DNA of 44,042 bases from Oscillospiraceae bacterium (GTDB taxonomy: Bacteria; Bacillota; Clostridia; Oscillospirales; Acutalibacteraceae), in the NCBI GenBank assembly GCA_029227055.1, contig JAQXZE010000022.1, forward strand, positions 1 to 44,042, read 5' to 3'. Numbering within the stretch: the stretch's first letter is position 1; the number at the start of each line of letters is the position of its first letter. Below are positions 9,694 to 18,459 of this stretch, one piece after another. The notes beneath the pieces are model-generated. The model had not been told where the DNA came from. It searched no databases and saw nothing but the letters and a program-made list of their open reading frames with translations. Position numbers and translations under genes: made by a program.

Positions 9694-10275
9694 ATGAACA
9701 AGAAATTAATTATTGGAATTATAGCTGCAGTAGTAGCCCTAGCTTTAGTAGTTGTTGGCATCATACATATAACAGGCGGTCTTGGCAGTAAAGATCCGTC
9801 TACAAGCACCCCTTCCTCCTCAACTCCTTCAGGTTCCAAGCTACCATCCGCGAACAACCCTGAGAATAATATAATCGAGGGTGAAAAAACAGAAATTTCT
9901 GCCGATAAAAAAGATACCGAAACTATAATCACTGTACCGATTAAGTTGAGCAACAATACCGGTGTTGGCGGTGCTCAGTTGTTTTTCACTTACGACACCG
10001 ATGCTCTTGTATATGTAGACTACGGCAAGGGGGATATCTTTGATGATCATATGATTGAGGAGTCAAAGGGCGGCATTGCTTGCATATCATCAACTTCTCA
10101 GAACAAAGATATCGTCAAGGATGGTACACTCTTAACCCTTTCCTTTAAGGTTAAAGAAAATGCTAAGCCCGGCGAGTATGAAATTAAAATTGACAAATCT
10201 AAGACAAAGTTTGCAAGCTTTGATGAGAAATATGTTAAACCTACCCTCTCTACAGGAAAAATCACTATTAAATAA
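9694..10275 (+). CDS. Membrane-anchored cohesin-domain protein (N-terminal anchor)
   Basis: This 193-aa surface protein has three parts. Residues about 5-27 are one hydrophobic signal-anchor with no cleavage motif I can support. A Ser/Thr/Pro-rich spacer (about 33-62) should cross the wall. Residues about 66-193 are a cohesin-like beta sandwich, seen from ITVPIKLSN, GVGGAQLFFTYD, DALVYV, GTLLTLSFKVKENAKPGEYEI and the closing strand. Cohesins bind dockerins; a dockerin-bearing hydrolase lies about 3 kb away. It starts 14 bases after the nucleotidyltransferase gene, with AAAGGAG at good spacing, and ends the operon at a terminator. Some cohesin-fold modules bind other partners, so dockerin binding is inference. 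Confidence 0.85.
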   Translation: MNKKLIIGIIAAVVALALVVVGIIHITGGLGSKDPSTSTPSSSTPSGSKLPSANNPENNIIEGEKTEISADKKDTETIITVPIKLSNNTGVGGAQLFFTYDTDALVYVDYGKGDIFDDHMIEESKGGIACISSTSQNKDIVKDGTLLTLSFKVKENAKPGEYEIKIDKSKTKFASFDEKYVKPTLSTGKITIK

Positions 10276-10281
10276 TTTTTT

Positions 10282-10318
10282 AGCGGATTGCAATATGCAG
10301 TCCGCTTTACTTTTTTTA
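10282..10318 (+). terminator. Terminator after the cohesin gene
   Basis: AGCGGATTGCA (10282-10292) and TGCAGTCCGCT (10296-10306) pair with one mismatch, and a run of seven T follows. Confidence 0.8.
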
Positions 10319-10323
10319 TTTTA

Positions 10324-10352
10324 TTGAAAAATTCGACAAAAGATAGTATAAT
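10324..10352 (+). promoter_or_regulatory. Promoter of the GT2-GtrA gene
   Basis: TTGAAA (10324-10329) and TATAAT (10347-10352) are 17 bases apart, giving the next gene its own transcription start. Confidence 0.7.
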
Positions 10353-10391
10353 GATATAAAGTATAATTATTAATGCTTTTTGAGGTATTAT

Positions 10392-11420
10392 ATGGATTAT
10401 AAAATTGCTATACTAATACCCGCTTTCAAGCCGAACGATTATCTGTGCCACCTTATAGCAACCCTGAGGGACAGCAGTTTTTTACCCACACTGGTAGTTG
10501 ACGACGGAAGCGGCGAAGAATACAACGAAATATTTGAAAAGGCAGAAAGGCTCGGCGCCGAGGTTATACACTTTCCCGATAACAAAGGAAAAGGTGCCGC
10601 TTTAAAATGCGGTTTTAAGTATCTATCTGAGCTTGGATATTCTGCTGCTATCACTGCCGATGCTGACGGACAACACACGGCAGACGATATTTTAAAAATC
10701 GCCAAGGCACTAACAGAAAACCCGCGTTCCTTAATACTCGGCATCAGAGATACCGACGAAATGCCCACCCGATACCGTGCCGTTAATGCAACTACCTCAA
10801 GATTATTCAAGCTCCTTTACGGTATTAATGTACCCGATACTCAAACAGGGCTTCGCGGTGTTCCTCTTAAAAGAATAAAGCGTCTTTTAAATTTAGAGGG
10901 TGAGCATTTTGAATATGAAATGAATATGCTCATAACCTATGACCGCATTTTCAAGGAAATCATTGAGGTACCGATTAAAACCATTTTTATTGACGATAAC
11001 AAAGCCTCTCATTTTAGACCAATTTATGATAACGCTAAAATTTTTAGCATTCTCTTAAAACGGCTCCCAAAATTCCTGATTTCCTCTTTTTCCGCTTTCT
11101 GTATTGACTATACCATATTCGCATTACTTATTAAATGGACAGGCAGTATGCCGGTTACTTCCACAATTATTGCCCGTCTTATAAGTGGCTCATATAACTA
11201 CACAATCAATAAGTTCTTTGTTTTTAAGAAGTCCAAAGGATATACTGCGGCAAAGTACTTTACCCTCAGTTTTTCATTACTTGCCATTAACTGTCTTCTT
11301 ATAACATTTGCGGTTAGAATTCTCAATATACCGCCGCTTATTGCCAAGATATTTATAGAAATGACTATGTATGTAATTAACTTTACAGTTCAAAGCCGAA
11401 TGGCACAAATAAAAAAATAG
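10392..11420 (+). CDS. Fusion of a GT2 glycosyltransferase with a GtrA-type membrane domain
   Basis: The 342-aa protein joins two modules. Residues about 1-210 are a GT-A fold family 2 transferase like dolichyl/polyprenyl-phosphate sugar synthases: ILIPAFKP, VVDDGSG and the metal-binding ADADGQH. Residues about 220-342 are a GtrA-like module of about four membrane helices (FLISSFSAFCIDY, ISGSYNYTINKFFVF). The expected job is to make a polyprenyl-phosphate-linked sugar and help flip it outward for side-branch glycosylation of a wall polymer. The ATG at 10392 is chosen from GAGG at 10382; an upstream in-frame TTG overlaps that site. It has its own promoter and ends in a bidirectional terminator. 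Confidence 0.9.
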   Translation: MDYKIAILIPAFKPNDYLCHLIATLRDSSFLPTLVVDDGSGEEYNEIFEKAERLGAEVIHFPDNKGKGAALKCGFKYLSELGYSAAITADADGQHTADDILKIAKALTENPRSLILGIRDTDEMPTRYRAVNATTSRLFKLLYGINVPDTQTGLRGVPLKRIKRLLNLEGEHFEYEMNMLITYDRIFKEIIEVPIKTIFIDDNKASHFRPIYDNAKIFSILLKRLPKFLISSFSAFCIDYTIFALLIKWTGSMPVTSTIIARLISGSYNYTINKFFVFKKSKGYTAAKYFTLSFSLLAINCLLITFAVRILNIPPLIAKIFIEMTMYVINFTVQSRMAQIKK

Positions 11421-11444
11421 AGTCCAACAGGACTCTATTTTTTT
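11414..11444. terminator. Bidirectional terminator between the GT2-GtrA and cohesin-like genes
   Basis: AAAATAGAGTCC (11414-11425) and GGACTCTATTTT (11430-11441) are perfect arms. The GT2-GtrA stop codon (11418-11420) lies inside the stem, and A and T runs flank both sides. Confidence 0.85.
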
Positions 11445-11450
11445 ATTCTT

Positions 11451-12977
11451 TTATTCGTTTTTGGAATCGTCAACAATATCGATTTCATCAAACAGATTCA
11501 TACCGCCGATTTCTTCGAAGTCCTCTTCCTCAATTTCGTGGCGTCTCGGGTACAATTTCAATATAAGTAATACGATTAAGGCAATAACACAAGCTACTAC
11601 AACTACAAGAGCGATAATTACTACCTTGCCTGTTCCCGAAATCTTTGATATTTCACCTATCGAAGAAAGAACCTTTTCTTCGTCAGGGCTATCTATTATC
11701 ACTTCAGGAGCATCAAAGTCGAAAGCTCGCTGAATAGTGATTTCTAGCATATCAAATCGGTAATAACCGTATTTACCTTCAGTAAGGCAGTATATTACAT
11801 AAAAATCCGAAAGCTTTTCATTTGTAGAAGTATATGCCTCTACACTTGTATTTCCAAGATTTATATTTGTCTTATAATAGCCCTTTACAGTATCCTTAGT
11901 ACCCTCTTTTAATATGATGTACATTTTATTTGATACGGTAAAGTAAGAAAGAAGAGAAAACTCGTCAGCCTCTTTATGATATGTATAATAATCCACTGTG
12001 CCGCTTTCTAGATTTTTTAAGAAGTAAAGTTCAAATTTACCGTCTTCAGATTTTGCGGTGGCTACAGTTTTATCGTTATAAAGTGCCGTACCCTCTGTAA
12101 AGCCTGCAGGAATTTCTTTGCCGCTTGTATTGGAAAGCACCATAAATGTATCCTCACCTATTGTAACCTCAAGCGGATTTGTTGGGGTTTCGGGCTCATC
12201 TGACGATGTTTCGGAAGATGTATCAGACGATGGATTTTCCATCGACGAAGTATCTGCCGCCGACCTTGAAATTACAACTGTATAAACCTTTGTTTTGCCG
12301 CTCGGTGCAGTTACTGTGATAGTTCTTGTATTATCACCTACTGTAAGGGTAGAGACATTAGGAGCTATTGCCACCTTTGCATCCTTATCAGCCGCAGAAG
12401 CGGTTATTGTGCAGCTTTTAACTGTGTTACCTACAAGCACCTTATACTTGGTTGTATTTTTGTTAAATGCAGGAGATAATGTGCCCTTTGAAACCTTAAG
12501 AGCCGAAAGGTCGGCATTGTCGGATTTGTTGTCGACTACGGTAACGGTAACAGAGGAACCTGTTATAGCTTTTTGTTGTGCATTTATATCACTGCTTCCG
12601 TCGACATAAGTTGCATTCTTAAATGCTATACTTGATTTTCCTACACCCTTAGTCTTAAATTTAATGGAATATTTACGAGACTTCACTTCATCCAATGATG
12701 TACCTACAATTTTAACAGTTCCTGCGCCTTCTAAAACAGCAGAATCACCCGAAACAAACTCTAATACCTTAGTATTATATTCGAGATATCCCTCGACCAC
12801 AGATATTATCTCATTAGCCTTAACATTAATTGTTACAGTAAGTGTACTTCCAACTTTAAGGTTACTCGCACTTAAAGAAATGGTTGAGGTTGCCGCTGCC
12901 GAAACAGTAAAACAAAAAACCGAAGAAACAATTATTATTGATATGATAACCGAAAAAATTCTCTTAAGAGTTTTCAT
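11451..12977 (-). CDS. Membrane-anchored cohesin-like protein with cadherin-like domain (C-terminal anchor)
   Basis: This 508-aa protein has a signal peptide (1-28, cut near VSAA), a cohesin-like beta sandwich (about 30-150: VGSTLTVTINV, EGYLEYNTKVLEFVSG, KYSIKFKT), a cadherin-like beta-sandwich module (about 153-240, containing LSALKVSKGTLSPAF and TKVYTVVIS), a Ser/Glu/Pro-rich linker, a further domain of about 150 residues that I do not recognise, one membrane helix (about 447-470) and a very acidic cytoplasmic tail. The adhesive module thus faces outward. The gene starts 13 bases after the dockerin glucosaminidase gene on the same strand with no terminator between, so enzyme and possible receptor are made together. 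The cohesin call rests on pattern and is weaker than for the gene at 9694. Confidence 0.78.
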   Translation of the reverse strand: MKTLKRIFSVIISIIIVSSVFCFTVSAAATSTISLSASNLKVGSTLTVTINVKANEIISVVEGYLEYNTKVLEFVSGDSAVLEGAGTVKIVGTSLDEVKSRKYSIKFKTKGVGKSSIAFKNATYVDGSSDINAQQKAITGSSVTVTVVDNKSDNADLSALKVSKGTLSPAFNKNTTKYKVLVGNTVKSCTITASAADKDAKVAIAPNVSTLTVGDNTRTITVTAPSGKTKVYTVVISRSAADTSSMENPSSDTSSETSSDEPETPTNPLEVTIGEDTFMVLSNTSGKEIPAGFTEGTALYNDKTVATAKSEDGKFELYFLKNLESGTVDYYTYHKEADEFSLLSYFTVSNKMYIILKEGTKDTVKGYYKTNINLGNTSVEAYTSTNEKLSDFYVIYCLTEGKYGYYRFDMLEITIQRAFDFDAPEVIIDSPDEEKVLSSIGEISKISGTGKVVIIALVVVVACVIALIVLLILKLYPRRHEIEEEDFEEIGGMNLFDEIDIVDDSKNE

Positions 12978-12990
12978 TTTTATCTCCCTT

Positions 12991-14802
12991 TTAGCTTAAT
13001 TTTATTTTGCCGAGCAAATGCTTTTGAATATTTGCAAGGTCTACAATGGTTATTTTGTTATCCTTGTTTGTGTCTGCCCCTAGTAAATTTGTACCTGACA
13101 AGGTTATTTTGCTGAGCAGATGCTTTTGAACATTTGCAAGGTCTACAATGGTTATTTTGTTATCCCCATTCGTATCCCCTAGGATATAGGTCGGTGCGGG
13201 GGGTGTTACCTCACTGCCCGAATCATCGTCACCGTCATTTCCGCCATCCCCTACAGGTTCACCGTTTACAGAAATATTAAGGGTAGCTATTTTTTCCGAA
13301 TTCACCTTGATTGTATATGTATTAAGGTAACCCGTTTCACTCTTTACTAAAAGCTTAATCGTATTAAGACCTTTTGTTAAGTTAAATTGCTTTGCTGATG
13401 CAAAGGTTGCCTTTTCAGGTACTTCAACACCTATCGTTGTAGTACCGTCAACTGAAAGGCTATAGTTGTACTCATACATTGAGAAAGACGGGGTAAGTCC
13501 TGCAGCTTTAATATCAAGGAAATAATAATTGTTGTATTTCGTGCTCTTTGCAGGCAACTCTGCTTTTTTATCGGGAATACTTTTATATACGGGAATTTTG
13601 AAAACAAGAGCCATTGAAGTATCATTTTTATAGGTGTTTCTAACACCGTAACCCTTTGAGCGTGCATCTTCAACATTTGTTGCATACTGATGCCCATAAT
13701 AAGGCTTATTTACTAAATTATAATCTTTATAAAAATATGTATCCTGACCTATCTTTAAATAATCGTCGCCGTATTTAACAGCACCCAATATTATTGATTT
13801 AGAGCGAGTATTCCAACCCTGTTTTTTAGCGTATGCCAAACCGTTTGTAATAACTGCGGATTCAGTTGGACCTGTTGCTTTCCAATTAAAGAAATTATAA
13901 TAATTTTCATATCCCGAATATTTACCCGAAATCAAAGAGCTTGTCCCATTAACGCCCTGCTCCTGACGAATGGTAGCCGCTAATATATAAGGATTTACGT
14001 CCGACTGCTTTGCAGCCTCCATTATAACCTTAACATAGTCGCCACCGTATTCGGTATCATTAGGGTCGGTATATCCTTTTTCAAGGAAGGTGCCCTTTAT
14101 AATTTCTTTAACTCCATCCTCTGTCTGCAAATTAGCATCATACGACTGGGATAAAAACATATAAATCTGGTCGGCATCCAAGAAATTTCTAGGGTCCATA
14201 TAATAGGCTACAACTTCTCTTGAGGCGCCTGTCCAACCACCTTCAACAGTCCCCCATGTTTTTGTTTTCCAATTGTAAACCGTATCTCCCATAGAACGCC
14301 AAGAAATAGCGTTATCATCATACTGGACTACCTTTCTAAAGCCTGTAGCCTCATTTGCAAGAGCCGTTTCAAATGACATTGTAAGCGTATGGGCTACAAA
14401 TTTCCAATTGGGATAGGTTTTATGTAATTCTTTGAGTGCGCTATGATAGCTTTCAGGGAAATCCTTTAAGGATTCCTCAAAGGTTTTATCGGCTTCGGGG
14501 GTTGAGGGGGTTGGTTCAATAATCTCAAGCCACTCACCGTACATATATCCTGTTATACCATTGTATTTAACCTTATACCAAGGATAATCCTCATTAGTAT
14601 CTACAGTTCCCAAAACTTCAACCGTTACATAACTAACCGTAGCAAGAATTGTGCTATCCTTTGTTGTTGCCTTGTCTCGTATTCTTACATTAGAGCCTGT
14701 TACTTTTCCCATTGTAGCCGCAGAAACCGTTATTATAAACAAAGGGGAAATCAGAAGAATTACCGATAAAGCCAATGATAAAAGTTTTATGGGTTTTTTC
14801 AT
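12991..14802 (-). CDS. Dockerin-bearing SH3b / glucosaminidase cell-wall hydrolase
   Basis: This 603-aa secreted protein has a signal peptide (1-29), an SH3b wall-binding domain (about 34-95), a glucosaminidase region (about 110-440) with the catalytic-type stretch ILAATIRQEQGVNG, a cadherin-like beta-sandwich segment, a Gly/Asp linker and a C-terminal type I dockerin (about 539-603). The dockerin has two calcium-binding repeats, DTNGDNKITIVDLANVQKHL and DTNKDNKITIVDLANIQKHL. The enzyme should cut N-acetylglucosaminyl bonds in peptidoglycan. I chose the ATG at 14802, with AGGAG in place and a normal signal peptide; the longer in-frame version adds 44 residues that hide the signal. It leads an operon with the anchored cohesin-like gene. 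A wall enzyme with a dockerin is unusual. Confidence 0.9.
   Translation of the reverse strand: MKKPIKLLSLALSVILLISPLFIITVSAATMGKVTGSNVRIRDKATTKDSTILATVSYVTVEVLGTVDTNEDYPWYKVKYNGITGYMYGEWLEIIEPTPSTPEADKTFEESLKDFPESYHSALKELHKTYPNWKFVAHTLTMSFETALANEATGFRKVVQYDDNAISWRSMGDTVYNWKTKTWGTVEGGWTGASREVVAYYMDPRNFLDADQIYMFLSQSYDANLQTEDGVKEIIKGTFLEKGYTDPNDTEYGGDYVKVIMEAAKQSDVNPYILAATIRQEQGVNGTSSLISGKYSGYENYYNFFNWKATGPTESAVITNGLAYAKKQGWNTRSKSIILGAVKYGDDYLKIGQDTYFYKDYNLVNKPYYGHQYATNVEDARSKGYGVRNTYKNDTSMALVFKIPVYKSIPDKKAELPAKSTKYNNYYFLDIKAAGLTPSFSMYEYNYSLSVDGTTTIGVEVPEKATFASAKQFNLTKGLNTIKLLVKSETGYLNTYTIKVNSEKIATLNISVNGEPVGDGGNDGDDDSGSEVTPPAPTYILGDTNGDNKITIVDLANVQKHLLSKITLSGTNLLGADTNKDNKITIVDLANIQKHLLGKIKLS
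13002..13165 (-). repeat. Tandem duplication encoding the two dockerin repeats
   Basis: A 62-base segment at 13002-13063 recurs at 13104-13165, 102 bases apart, with only three differences. It codes for the two calcium-binding loops and helices of the dockerin. Such DNA-level identity points to recent duplication or gene conversion. Confidence 0.85.
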
Positions 14803-14850: not shown

Positions 14851-14879
14851 ATTATATACTTTTATAGTATTTATGTCAA
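14851..14879 (-). promoter_or_regulatory. Consensus promoter of the glucosaminidase-cohesin operon
   Basis: On the minus strand TTGACA (14874-14879) and TATAAT (14851-14856) are 17 bases apart, a perfect match. The leader is about 40 bases long and ends in AAAGGAGATAAAA before the ATG. Confidence 0.9.
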
Positions 14880-14910
14880 TCGGTAATTGATGACAGAAGC
14901 CATTAAAATA

Positions 14911-14937
14911 CGGGTGAAAATCTTTCATTTTCACCCG
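14911..14937 (-). terminator. Terminator after addA
   Basis: CGGGTGAAAAT (14911-14921) and ATTTTCACCCG (14927-14937) are perfect arms. The T run beyond it on the minus strand is short and interrupted. Confidence 0.7.
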
Positions 14938-14949
14938 TTTTCTTAAATT

Positions 14950-17900
14950 TTATACATTTCCAAAGCAGTTTAAAGCAAAGGAATATATGAGCTTTTCCCG
15001 AACAGGCTTATTGAATATCTTTTTACAGGCTTCTGCATAGATATTAAGCTGCTCGGAATATGTGTTTTTGAGCTCTTCAAAGCTTTCTACCCTATCGCTC
15101 TTAAAATCGAGAATTACTATCTCGCCGTTTTCCTCAAAACAAAGGTCAACCGCACCCTGAATAATAATTTTTTCGTCTTGAAGCTCGATAGCTATTGTGC
15201 TATCGATTTTACCGGCTGAAACCTCGGTTAAAAACCGCATTTCGCGTTTTATATTGTCGGCATTTTTTATACGGGCAAACACATCGCTTTTAAAAAACGC
15301 CTTGATTGCCGATATATCCACTGCTTCTGCCTCGGTTTCGGATATATATTCCCATTCACGAAGACGCTCAATTTCATCCTCTACACTTACATCAGAAGAA
15401 AAGCTTATAAACTGCATCACCTTATGCATAGCAGTTCCTCTGCCTGCGGCGGTTATTCCGCTTGACGCCATAAATGACGGAATCGACGAAAAGGCAAATC
15501 TTTCGCTTTCAGCCTTATTTGCAATAGCCGAAACCGACGCCTTAGCCTCAATATTTTTAAGTACATCAAAGGGATAGCTATAGTTTATATTTTCCTTGAT
15601 TTTTGAGACGATTTGCGGATTTACATCAATATCTGTATCGGTATTCTCTAAAGTAATTATCGGCTTTATACCATCAGCAGATACTATTTCAACGCTAAGG
15701 TCAGACGCGGTATCAAAGGGGACAAAAGACGCCTCTGCAAGTGTTCTTAGAGCCTCACCGCTCTTATGAAGCAAAGCGGCAGTTAAAATCCAATTACCCA
15801 CACTAGATGCCGACATAAACATATCGTTTGTGACCTTTAAATCGTTATTTACAAGAGCGCTAGCAAGCTCCAAAAGCTTTTTAGGCAGATTATTATACGC
15901 CGCCATCATAACAAGCATATCTTCGGCGCGGGTCATCGCAACATAAAGAAGACGAAGCTCTTCCTCTAGGGTTTTAGCCCTCATTTCGTTTGATATCAAA
16001 ACCCTCGCCAAAGTTTCCTTTTTAGTGCCTAGCATCTCGTCATAATACTTAAAGCCTATACCGTAGTTTTCCGAAAAAATCACGGCATCATTAGAGTCGG
16101 ACATATTGGTTTGAGACTCTAGATTAGCTATAATGCAGACCGGAAACTGTAGTCCCTTTGAAGCGTGAATACTCATTATTTGAACGGCATTTCCGCTGTT
16201 TATCTTAACAGAAGCTTCCCTCTCTCCCACAGAGGTTTTCATATACTCGATAAAACCGCCGATTCCCTTAGCAGAATTTTGACTGTATGCAGCGGCAAAA
16301 TCTGCAAGCTTAAAGAGGTTCGCCCGTCTTCTTACACCGTCAGGCATAGCGAGAACAATATCGCCGTAGCCTGTATCTATTATCAGCTTATGAACAAAGG
16401 CAGCAAGGGGCATTATAAGCGATTTTGTGCGGAAATTTTCTAATGCAGAATAAAATTCCCTTAAATGCTCGTTATTATCCTTTTCTGCAGCTATTGCAGA
16501 AATCAAATCTGTATTCGGATTTTTGGCCTTTATACTTGCAAGTTCCTCTGCCGTAAAGCTGAAAATCGGAGACATCATAACTGTTAACATCGCAATATTA
16601 TCAAGCGGATTATCTATAATTTTCAAAAGGGATAAAAATGTATCTACCTCTAAAAGATTTAAAAAGTTATCCTTAGGATAATTTACGGGTATTCCCCTCT
16701 CTTCAAGTCTTGCGGCAATTTTTCCTGCCGAAGTAGAGGTTGACCTTAAAAGTATAGCAAAATCGGAATAGGTAGCTTTTCTAAGGCCGTCCTCCTTTGT
16801 ATGTATACATTCTCCCGAATTTATTATATTCACGATATTATTAGCAATAGCGTCCGCCTCAACAACAAGGCGTTCTTCGTCACTTTCCCCTATTTTATCA
16901 ATAAGACAAAGCTTAGCCTTTGGGATATCGTTTTCTGCAAACTCTGCGGTGGCAACAAGCTCTTCTTCAGAATTATATATGATTTTACCCGTTTCTTCGG
17001 TCATAAACAGAGAAAAGAAGAAGTTTACAAAGTCACAAACTCCGCCGCGGCTTCTGAAATTGTTTGCAAGAATTATCTTTCTGGCGTCATTTTCACTTGC
17101 CTCTTCGACCGGTATATATCTATCCTTCTTTTTAAGGAAATTATTTGGATTTGCACCTCTGAACCCATATATACTCTGTTTTAAATCACCTACCGCAAAA
17201 AGCTTTTGCTCGCAGTTTGACAAAACATAAAAAAGCGCATCCTGAAGGTCGTTTACATCCTGATACTCATCCACCAATACCTCATCAAACTGATTTAAAA
17301 ACTCGTATGCTTCGGGTCTTATATGCGGCATACCGTCCTTTTCTTCACATAGAAGCTTTAAGGCTAGTTGCTCGGTATTATAAAAGGTAAGGGTGTTTTC
17401 TTCAAGTTGAGCCTGAAAGAGCCTTTCCCTATACTCTTTTATTATGTCTATAAATCTATTTATCGGCTTTGCAAAGAGGACAAGCTCGCTCGAAATCTGA
17501 TCTTTTTCCTCAAAGAAGATGCGTTTTAGCTTCTTTCTTTCAAAGTCAGCACCGTTTTTGCACTTTTTAACCTCTGAGGCTAAGGACGGCTCCATATTTT
17601 TAGTAGTACGAGGCGCTGTAGGGAACAAAAAGCTATCAGACGCTAAAAGAATTTCGTCCCAATCCTCTGCCTCGACTGCTTTTTTAAGAGGCAAAAGCCC
17701 ATTATAAAGCATCGCAAAATAGTCCTTAAATTTTTGACCGCTATCCCCCATCATTTCGGAGGCGCCAAAGCCGTTTTCAATATATTCGCTAAGCTTCCCT
17801 ATTATTCTTCTTGCATCCTCTATACATCTATCAAAAAAGGGATTCCCCTTACCGAATGGTATTTCATAGTTTACCGCAAGGTTTTTTAAGAATACATCGG

Positions 17901-18459
17901 GGAAAGGCATTTGCATACTGTAATCAAAAACATTCTTAACGGCTTTTGCCAAATTGGATTCGTCATACTCACAGCCTGTAAGCTCTAAAAGCTTATAAAG
18001 CACATCATCCGCATTATCTAGTTGTTCTTCTATTACAGAAGAAAGAACACCTCTTGATAGCTCGTTTAAATTTGTATCGGTTATAATTTTAAAATCGGGT
18101 GTTACTGACAGCTTTTCGAAATTTTCACGCACTAAATCTATGCAAAAAGAGTCGATAGTGCAGATTTTTGCAGAGGCTATCAAAAATCTCTGCTTTTTTA
18201 AAGCCGCATCGTTTGGGCGTTTGAGAGTTTCTTCATAAATGCGCTTTTCAATTCTCGAACGCATTTCTGCTGCCGCCGCATTTGTAAAGGTTACAATTAA
18301 AAGTCTATCGGCAGATATGGGGTTTTGCTCACGGGTGAGCATTCTTATAACGCGTTCTACCAAAACCGCAGTTTTACCTGAGCCTGCCGCCGCGCAAACT
18401 AGTATATTACCCTTTTCGCTTATTGCGGTTTCCTGCTGTTTTGTAAATTTTAAACCCAT
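14950..18459 (-). CDS. addA: ATP-dependent helicase/nuclease AddA
   Basis: AddA is the UvrD-like 3'-5' helicase and RecB-type nuclease subunit of AddAB, which resects double-strand ends for RecA repair. The 1169-aa protein has Walker A AAGSGKT (about residues 24-30), the DEYQDVN motif, GDLKQSIYGFRGA, and LLYVAMTRAEDML near motif VI. The C-terminal nuclease domain contains GAVDLC and ILDFKSD, the catalytic GxxD-DxK pattern. The ATG follows the addB stop codon directly and its binding site GGAGATG lies in the last addB codons, so the subunits are translationally coupled. Confidence 0.96.
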   Translation of the reverse strand: MGLKFTKQQETAISEKGNILVCAAAGSGKTAVLVERVIRMLTREQNPISADRLLIVTFTNAAAAEMRSRIEKRIYEETLKRPNDAALKKQRFLIASAKICTIDSFCIDLVRENFEKLSVTPDFKIITDTNLNELSRGVLSSVIEEQLDNADDVLYKLLELTGCEYDESNLAKAVKNVFDYSMQMPFPDVFLKNLAVNYEIPFGKGNPFFDRCIEDARRIIGKLSEYIENGFGASEMMGDSGQKFKDYFAMLYNGLLPLKKAVEAEDWDEILLASDSFLFPTAPRTTKNMEPSLASEVKKCKNGADFERKKLKRIFFEEKDQISSELVLFAKPINRFIDIIKEYRERLFQAQLEENTLTFYNTEQLALKLLCEEKDGMPHIRPEAYEFLNQFDEVLVDEYQDVNDLQDALFYVLSNCEQKLFAVGDLKQSIYGFRGANPNNFLKKKDRYIPVEEASENDARKIILANNFRSRGGVCDFVNFFFSLFMTEETGKIIYNSEEELVATAEFAENDIPKAKLCLIDKIGESDEERLVVEADAIANNIVNIINSGECIHTKEDGLRKATYSDFAILLRSTSTSAGKIAARLEERGIPVNYPKDNFLNLLEVDTFLSLLKIIDNPLDNIAMLTVMMSPIFSFTAEELASIKAKNPNTDLISAIAAEKDNNEHLREFYSALENFRTKSLIMPLAAFVHKLIIDTGYGDIVLAMPDGVRRRANLFKLADFAAAYSQNSAKGIGGFIEYMKTSVGEREASVKINSGNAVQIMSIHASKGLQFPVCIIANLESQTNMSDSNDAVIFSENYGIGFKYYDEMLGTKKETLARVLISNEMRAKTLEEELRLLYVAMTRAEDMLVMMAAYNNLPKKLLELASALVNNDLKVTNDMFMSASSVGNWILTAALLHKSGEALRTLAEASFVPFDTASDLSVEIVSADGIKPIITLENTDTDIDVNPQIVSKIKENINYSYPFDVLKNIEAKASVSAIANKAESERFAFSSIPSFMASSGITAAGRGTAMHKVMQFISFSSDVSVEDEIERLREWEYISETEAEAVDISAIKAFFKSDVFARIKNADNIKREMRFLTEVSAGKIDSTIAIELQDEKIIIQGAVDLCFEENGEIVILDFKSDRVESFEELKNTYSEQLNIYAEACKKIFNKPVREKLIYSFALNCFGNV

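What the first reader, a model, noticed from the sequence alone, without database searches (positions are those of the whole stretch)
9694..14802. Putative minimal cohesin-dockerin system that holds a peptidoglycan hydrolase at the membrane
Three genes within about 5 kb encode a type I dockerin on an SH3b-glucosaminidase, a cohesin-like module on a C-terminally anchored membrane protein, and a cohesin on an N-terminally anchored protein. The enzyme and the C-anchored protein share an operon 13 bases apart. Cohesin-dockerin pairs are best known from cellulosomes; here the cargo is a wall hydrolase and the scaffold has a single cohesin. It could confine a glucosaminidase to sites of growth, division or sporulation. 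The pairing is inferred from domains and linkage only.
Basis: partly seen in the sequence, partly recalled or inferred. Interest (0 to 1): 0.78.

Follow-up and report, generated by a model that had tools for sequence, protein, structure and literature searches.

The report
Membrane-docked wall-cutting enzyme in gut Clostridia
Many gut bacteria make, from one two-gene unit, an enzyme that cuts their own cell wall and a membrane-held partner that appears to grip it with the plug and socket known from cellulose-degrading complexes, here with one plug and one socket.

Summary

The two-gene pairing is well supported. Of 102 distinct dockerin-glucosaminidases with readable surroundings, 79 have a cohesin gene directly downstream, 6 a related partner with a probable diverged cohesin, 8 a cohesin gene nearby otherwise; sampling favoured dockerin-bearing enzymes. 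Dockerin and cohesin distances correlate after correction for the other domains (partial r 0.316, p 0.001); the cadherin control in the same protein does not (-0.009). In several genomes this is the only dockerin found, beside the cohesin.

The N-anchored cohesin is probably separate. Perfect sigma-70-type promoters (30 of 74 operons, 4 of 301 other genes) favour growth over sporulation. The dockerins are internally symmetric although the system is one-to-one.

Binding is untested; 8 of 29 glucosaminidases without a dockerin match still precede a cohesin gene.

The parts
14851..14879 (-). Promoter-like site of the operon, perfect TTGACA-17-TATAAT; the -10 ends 48 bases before the ATG, with AAAGGAG just before the ATG
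   Evidence: 12 of 12 matches; sequence printed; other operons
12991..14802 (-). Secreted SH3b-glucosaminidase-cadherin-like-dockerin (603 aa)
   Evidence: cadherin-like match only 14.7 bits in the window protein; 13 of 18 aligned sequences match it
14524..14694 (-). SH3_3 domain (residues 37-93), presumed wall-binding
13579..14244 (-). Glucosaminidase domain (residues 187-408), E281 conserved
13012..13182 (-). Type I dockerin (residues 541-597), two near-identical repeats (TIVDLANVQKHLL / TIVDLANIQKHLL)
11451..12977 (-). C-anchored cohesin protein (508 aa), second gene of the operon
12534..12899 (-). Cohesin module (about residues 27-148)
   Evidence: (block pLDDT 81-95 from residue 31)
12264..12509 (-). 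Cadherin-like domain (residues 157-238)
   Evidence: 35.5 bits, cut-off 24.2
11727..12170 (-). Unnamed conserved beta-rich domain (about residues 270-417)
   Evidence: no Pfam match there
11553..11636 (-). C-terminal helix, presumed transmembrane (residues 448-475)
   Evidence: helix, low to middling pLDDT; hydrophobic stretch in the sequence
11408..11447 (.). Terminator-like hairpin (18 pairs) between the convergent ends of the operon and the GT2-GtrA gene
   Evidence: reported on the + strand only
14910..14938 (.). Terminator-like hairpin between the upstream 14950-18459(-) gene and the operon
   Evidence: both strands
9694..10275 (+). N-anchored cohesin protein (193 aa); probably not part of this pair

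Best explanation
A dedicated one-to-one cohesin-dockerin tether for a housekeeping wall hydrolase. The glucosaminidase is secreted and shows no membrane anchor of its own. Its SH3b domain touches the wall, and its C-terminal dockerin is gripped, presumably with calcium, by the single cohesin of its operon partner, which a C-terminal helix holds at the outer membrane face. The enzyme is thereby confined to the membrane-proximal layer where new glycan strands leave the synthases, and it trims or releases nascent strands during vegetative growth, functionally like SagB with SpdC in staphylococci. Shown here by computation: modules, gene pair, promoter-like site, recurrence, dockerin-cohesin co-variation, internal symmetry of the dockerin, cohesin fold. 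Inferred: binding (about 0.9), membrane confinement (about 0.8), action on nascent strands (about 0.5).
For: Linkage: of 138 distinct glucosaminidase ORFs, 102 carry a dockerin with readable surroundings; 79 have a cohesin gene directly downstream (median gap 12 bases, 69 of 79 at 30 or less; a hydrophobic stretch beyond residue 60 in 75 of 79), 6 a related partner with a probable diverged cohesin, 1 a cohesin gene 297 bases on (L167), and 7 a divergent cohesin gene of another architecture. Exclusivity: in 7 of the 47 family genomes with exactly one PF00404 match it is this enzyme, and in 5 of those 7 the only PF00963 match at E 0.1 is next to it; 18 of 50 genomes reached through the named loci have one match, and in 13 of these 18 a PF00963 match lies in the next gene, R. 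bicirculans included. Co-variation: doc-coh partial r 0.316, p 0.001 (79 pairs), 0.349 in 44 diverse pairs; controls doc-cad -0.009, linker-coh -0.021. Co-switch: a DY motif in 5 of 6 dockerins facing the diverged module vs 1 of 76 facing a cohesin over 25 bits (motif chosen after looking). Fold. Expression: perfect promoter before 30 of 74 operons vs 4 of 301 other genes in the same loci; 0 of 79 above 10 of 12 before the partner gene.
Against: No binding was tested or modelled. In 8 of 29 complete glucosaminidases without a dockerin match the next gene still has a cohesin (in L215 the frame breaks inside the dockerin), and L214 has one further downstream, so the partner may have another role or contact; 7 of 8 such enzymes printed show SH3-like repeats by eye. 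In 9 of 102 dockerin enzymes no partner was found nearby, three R. albus loci among them (L238 is cut short); a paper reports one cohesin protein in R. [quoted passage not shown] Column-by-column covariation did not clearly exceed shuffles. 18 of the 79 pairs also built the profiles that found them, and 3 of the 79 cohesin matches are weak (20-24 bits). Fisher and Mantel permutations ignore relatedness, and loci were chosen by similarity to dockerin-bearing enzymes. The model's domain arrangement is uncertain (pTM 0.36). The promoter says when, not where.
Confidence: 0.72

Rival explanations
1. The glucosaminidase joins a general surface complex in this genome, docking on the N-anchored or C69 cohesin like the other dockerin proteins.
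For: The genome has 9 dockerins over the cut-off and two cohesins that score better than the operon's. Dockerin-bearing wall hydrolases of cellulosomes are in print (PMC6403190, one passage). R. albus carries the enzyme's dockerin with no cohesin found nearby.
Against: The other 8 dockerins over the cut-off are a different class (a DILDF-like or related repeat; at most 3 of 5 chosen positions equal between repeats) from this one (5 of 5). The pair recurs in genomes with no other PF00404 match. The N-anchored cohesin has no close relative near the operon in the loci held.
Confidence: 0.15
2. A sporulation or germination device: the pair confines a glucosaminidase to the forespore septum or cortex.
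For: Other single-dockerin genomes of the family carry the dockerin on a SpoIIP protein or an Amidase_3 protein.
Against: The window's operon and 30 of 74 others have a perfect sigma-70-type promoter, which fits vegetative expression.
Confidence: 0.1
3. The cohesin pairing regulates or stabilises the enzyme, or the partner's unnamed domain senses wall state and signals through its cytoplasmic tail; tethering is secondary.
For: The unnamed domain was found in 72 of 79 partners, and several of the 20 aligned partners have charged C-terminal tails. Partners persist beside enzymes without a dockerin match (8 of 29).
Against: With the other domains held constant only dockerin-cohesin is clear; dockerin-unnamed is weak (0.08, p 0.098; 0.117, p 0.098).
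Confidence: 0.2

Closest known systems
Clostridium perfringens GH84C/NagJ-type cohesin with dockerin partners (Adams 2008, not read; cited in PMC12997984 and PMC5429695)
   Different: There both sides are on glycoside hydrolases (PMC12997984, passages) and the binding mode is single (PMC5429695, Conclusions); here the cohesin is on a C-anchored protein, the cargo is a wall hydrolase and the dockerin is symmetric
Clostridium thermocellum OlpA-Doc918 and OlpC-Doc435 (3ul4, 4dh2)
   Different: Single binding mode reported there; the organism has a full cellulosome (recalled)
Staphylococcus aureus SagB-SpdC peptidoglycan release complex
   Same: A membrane partner controls a related glucosaminidase acting on nascent glycan (PMC12272431, passages); sequence relation
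   Different: SpdC is an integral CAAX-protease-family membrane protein; no cohesin or dockerin is mentioned in the passages seen
Dockerin-bearing wall hydrolases in ruminococcal cellulosomes ('lyticome' idea)
   Same: Wall hydrolase with a dockerin (PMC6403190, one passage)
   Different: Those are said to associate with scaffoldin cohesins; here a dedicated single-cohesin partner is encoded beside the enzyme
Non-SLH-anchoring scaffoldins with a C-terminal helix
   Same: Cohesin on a C-terminally anchored protein (PMC11557425, sections 6 and 15)
   Different: That survey required at least one multi-cohesin protein and one dockerin-glycosidase per genome, so genomes with only this pair would fall outside it

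Membership tests
Type I dockerin (PF00404) | Full-length duplicated repeat over the gathering score | tested here: met
   40.8 bits over 57 of 57 positions; 18 of 18 aligned enzymes match
Cohesin (PF00963) | Gathering score by the window protein alone | tested here: not met
   17.9 vs 24.1 bits; this is a detection limit of one model, not a property of the fold; 8 of 20 family members match at E 0.01
Cohesin (PF00963) | Cohesin beta-sandwich fold | tested here: met
Cohesin (PF00963) | Calcium-dependent dockerin binding | not testable with these tools
   Only indirect: linkage, exclusivity and co-variation
Cellulosome | Polyvalent scaffoldin | tested here: not met
   3 PF00963 matches on 3 separate proteins in a 96.89% complete genome; diverged cohesins could be missed
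SagB glucosaminidase (NF052642) | Family score | tested here: not met
   55.7 vs 425 bits: related, not SagB
GH73-like glucosaminidase | Glutamate in the position aligned to that of solved glucosaminidases | tested here: met
   E281; the GH73 label and its catalytic role are recalled
SpdC | Integral CAAX-protease-family membrane protein | tested here: not met
   The partner is modelled as beta-sandwich domains with one C-terminal helix besides the signal

The most novel reading that the evidence does not exclude
Cohesin-dockerin is first of all a housekeeping wall-growth tether in gut Clostridia, a family of membrane-held cohesin docks with exchangeable wall enzymes (glucosaminidase, amidase, perhaps lysozyme and SpoIIP), from which polyvalent cellulosomes may have been elaborated; and the dual-binding dockerin evolved in one-to-one pairs, not to relieve crowding on scaffoldins.
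Probability: 0.17. Interest if true: 0.87.

Novelty: new variant of a known kind. Interest (0 to 1): 0.64.

Why it matters
It moves cohesin-dockerin from feeding machinery to the cell's own wall, in genomes where the only dockerin found is on this enzyme. It offers a gut commensal counterpart to the SagB-SpdC question of how glucosaminidases are held at nascent peptidoglycan. It also makes an open question testable: dual binding is explained in print by flexibility or steric clashes on scaffoldins, and the non-cellulosomal pairs named there are single-mode (PMC5429695, Conclusions), yet here symmetric dockerins are kept in what looks like a one-to-one system (identical between repeats at 5 of 5 chosen positions in 44 of 79).

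Tried and rejected
Considered and rejected: that the cohesin-like module is chance (family profile and fold); that the N-anchored cohesin belongs to the pair; that the N-terminal module of the six partners without a cohesin match is an unrelated replacement (a profile built from those six also finds the cohesin stretch of L168 and L173, E 5e-8 and 2.6e-7; the six match it by construction, so 'diverged cohesin' stays probable).

Led nowhere: column-level covariation; an LPxTG-like DNA pattern scan (uninformative); Pfam on the Thr-rich divergent Ruminococcus-type partners (1 of 7 matched Cohesin, though the R. bicirculans one scores 53.1 bits); a model of the glucosaminidase; the unnamed domain (not folded alone; one search says parts beyond 27-239 were barely tested). 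One search was discarded because domains were cut wrongly; one search replaces it.

Literature: ten searches. No title or abstract start in these capped listings names this operon; I read passages or sections of nine of the papers only (PMC11557425, PMC4081043, PMC2930009, PMC12272431, PMC5814915, PMC6403190, PMC12997984, PMC5429695, with sections of PMC11557425 and PMC5429695). Peer 2009 and the SagB-SpdC structure paper are not held, and subscription journals are mostly missing, so absence from print is not shown.

Full report
What is in the sequence. The window is a whole contig of a 1.5 Mb, 96.89% complete genome of 70 contigs. The operon reads 14802 to 11451 on the minus strand: a 603-aa secreted protein (SH3_3, glucosaminidase, cadherin-like, dockerin), 13 bases, then a 508-aa protein (signal, cohesin, cadherin-like, unnamed domain, C-terminal helix). 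A perfect TTGACA-17-TATAAT lies at 14879-14851; terminator-like hairpins lie between the upstream gene and the operon and between the convergent 3' ends. The N-anchored cohesin (9694-10275, plus strand) has its own hairpin at 10282-10306, and a GT2-GtrA gene separates it from the operon.

The genome. It has 11 dockerin matches at E 1, 9 over the cut-off, and 3 cohesin matches, 2 over the cut-off, on three proteins. On C69 a transglutaminase-dockerin gene follows a cohesin gene directly. The other 8 dockerins over the cut-off carry a DILDF-like or related repeat with at most 3 of 5 chosen positions equal between repeats; the glucosaminidase dockerin has 5 of 5. The N-anchored cohesin resembles the C69 one (28%, E about 1e-8).

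Conservation. In 150 family genomes, 37 matched the enzyme at E 1e-10 (some only through the dockerin) and 47 the partner at E 1e-5 (some only through the cadherin-like domain). I took 20 regions where these matches fell; in 17 of 20 both genes lie side by side, the other three being contig ends or a lone partner. All 18 aligned enzymes, the window's included, match the dockerin model. A class-wide search matched 104 of 391 genomes at E 1e-20, with or without dockerin; I took 40 of its regions.

Pooled, with exact duplicates removed, these gave 138 enzyme ORFs: dockerin with downstream cohesin 79, dockerin with a related partner lacking a cohesin match 6, dockerin with neither 17; no dockerin match with downstream cohesin 8, with other partner domains 3, with neither 18; cut by a contig end 7. 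The profiles were built from the family alignments, so 18 of the 79 pairs were in them, and 3 of the 79 cohesin matches are weak. At least one enzyme called dockerin-less (L213) ends by eye in a dockerin-like stretch, and L214 has a cohesin gene further downstream. Of the 17, L167 has a cohesin gene 297 bases on, and 7 loci (L155, L160, L161, L169, L176, L187, L189) have a divergent cohesin gene of other architecture: R. bicirculans by PF00963 (53.1 bits), L187 by Pfam (36.6 bits), the rest by similarity to R. bicirculans; the three printed end in a hydrophobic helix (R. bicirculans, L176, L160). This is the same pairing in another arrangement. Nine remain without a partner found. For 79/23 against 8/21, Fisher p is 2.3e-6, but the sample was drawn by similarity to dockerin-bearing enzymes and rows are related.

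Exclusivity. 47 of 150 family genomes have exactly one dockerin match at E 0.001; in 7 of these it is this enzyme, and in 5 of the 7 the only PF00963 match at E 0.1 lies beside it (the other two have none by that model). Three of the seven assemblies are 71-87% complete. I then gave 50 of the 80 named loci to a whole-genome search: 18 of 50 have exactly one dockerin match; for 16 of 18 the place is listed and its open frame equals the enzyme's or is up to 27 residues longer; in 13 of 18 a PF00963 match lies in the next gene. Models can miss diverged modules, so other partners are not excluded.

Co-variation. On 79 pairs, the dockerin-cohesin distance correlation given catalytic domain, linker, cadherin-like and unnamed domains is 0.316 (p 0.001); dockerin-cadherin -0.009, dockerin-unnamed 0.08 (p 0.098), linker-cohesin -0.021 (partial tests use pairs where all domains were found). 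It holds in 44 diverse pairs (0.349, p 0.002) and without the three weakest cohesins (0.305, p 0.002). Column-level signals were inconclusive. A DY motif in the dockerin helix goes with the diverged module (5 of 6) rather than with cohesins over 25 bits (1 of 76; Fisher 1.3e-6); the motif was chosen after looking, and the lineages are not independent.

Symmetry. At positions 10, 11, 14, 17, 18 the two repeats of one dockerin agree in 0.89, 0.70, 0.97, 0.92, 0.89 of cases, against 0.16, 0.12, 0.23, 0.31, 0.25 between proteins (79 dockerins); in 63 dockerins under 60% identity the means are 0.86 and 0.22. I chose these five. One paper uses positions 10, 11, 17 and 18 of the repeat (PMC4081043, passage) and another names 11 and 15 (PMC5429695, passage); that the numbering agrees with mine was not checked. 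The latter ties internal symmetry to dual binding and says that C. thermocellum single-enzyme docks and the C. perfringens pair are single-mode (Conclusions).

Expression. A 12-of-12 promoter precedes 30 of 74 operons against 4 of 301 other genes in the same loci (Fisher 7e-20) and 0 of 1480 mononucleotide shuffles; 5 of the 79 pairs were left out for lack of upstream sequence. The window's own site is not among the 30, because its ORF was there taken from an upstream GTG.

Mechanism and verdict. The simplest reading is a one-to-one, membrane-held tether for a vegetative glucosaminidase. SagB-SpdC is the functional parallel (PMC12272431, passages), not a family membership. Against it stand the enzymes without a dockerin match beside a cohesin partner and the dockerin enzymes without a partner found. 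Wider theme in the same family: cohesin/cadherin-like proteins flank an Amidase_3-dockerin gene in G011 (30.9 and 22.2 bits, the second just under the cut-off) and follow an LRR-dockerin gene in G007 (24.7 bits); dockerins also occur on GH25 and SpoIIP proteins.

Noticed in passing
L021 4497-6984 (own genome C69): Transglutaminase-dockerin gene directly after a cohesin gene: a second adjacent dockerin-cohesin pair in this genome.
   Followed up: partly
L133 4150-8989 (G011): Amidase_3-dockerin gene flanked on both sides by cohesin/cadherin-like proteins with acidic C-terminal tails; one cohesin is just under the Pfam cut-off.
   Followed up: partly
L132 385-2790 (G041): One frame carries a dockerin followed by a SpoIIP domain (213.9 bits); proteins that look alike in their N-terminal part and end in a dockerin are the only dockerin match in several other family genomes (by eye).
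   Followed up: partly
L140 5610-6827 (G109): GH25-SH3-dockerin, the genome's only dockerin match.
   Followed up: no
L135 4069-6947, L136, L137: Leucine-rich-repeat dockerin genes beside a cohesin-type protein (L135 by Pfam; L136 and L137 by eye and by match places).
   Followed up: no
window 11727-12170: A conserved beta-rich domain without a Pfam match sits between the cadherin-like domain and the helix of the partner.
   Followed up: no
L148, L150, L186, L196, L208, L220, L272: Probable diverged cohesin module, no Cohesin match in Pfam for the six scanned of these (L272 not scanned), mostly paired with a DY-type dockerin.
   Followed up: partly
L188, L194, L202, L207, L212, L214, L219, L252: Glucosaminidases without a dockerin match but with a cohesin gene downstream; 7 of these 8 show SH3-like repeats by eye.
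   Followed up: partly
L123 5847-6878 (G046): A cohesin-like membrane protein between genes that look by eye like spmAB and cdaA (labels recalled).
   Followed up: no
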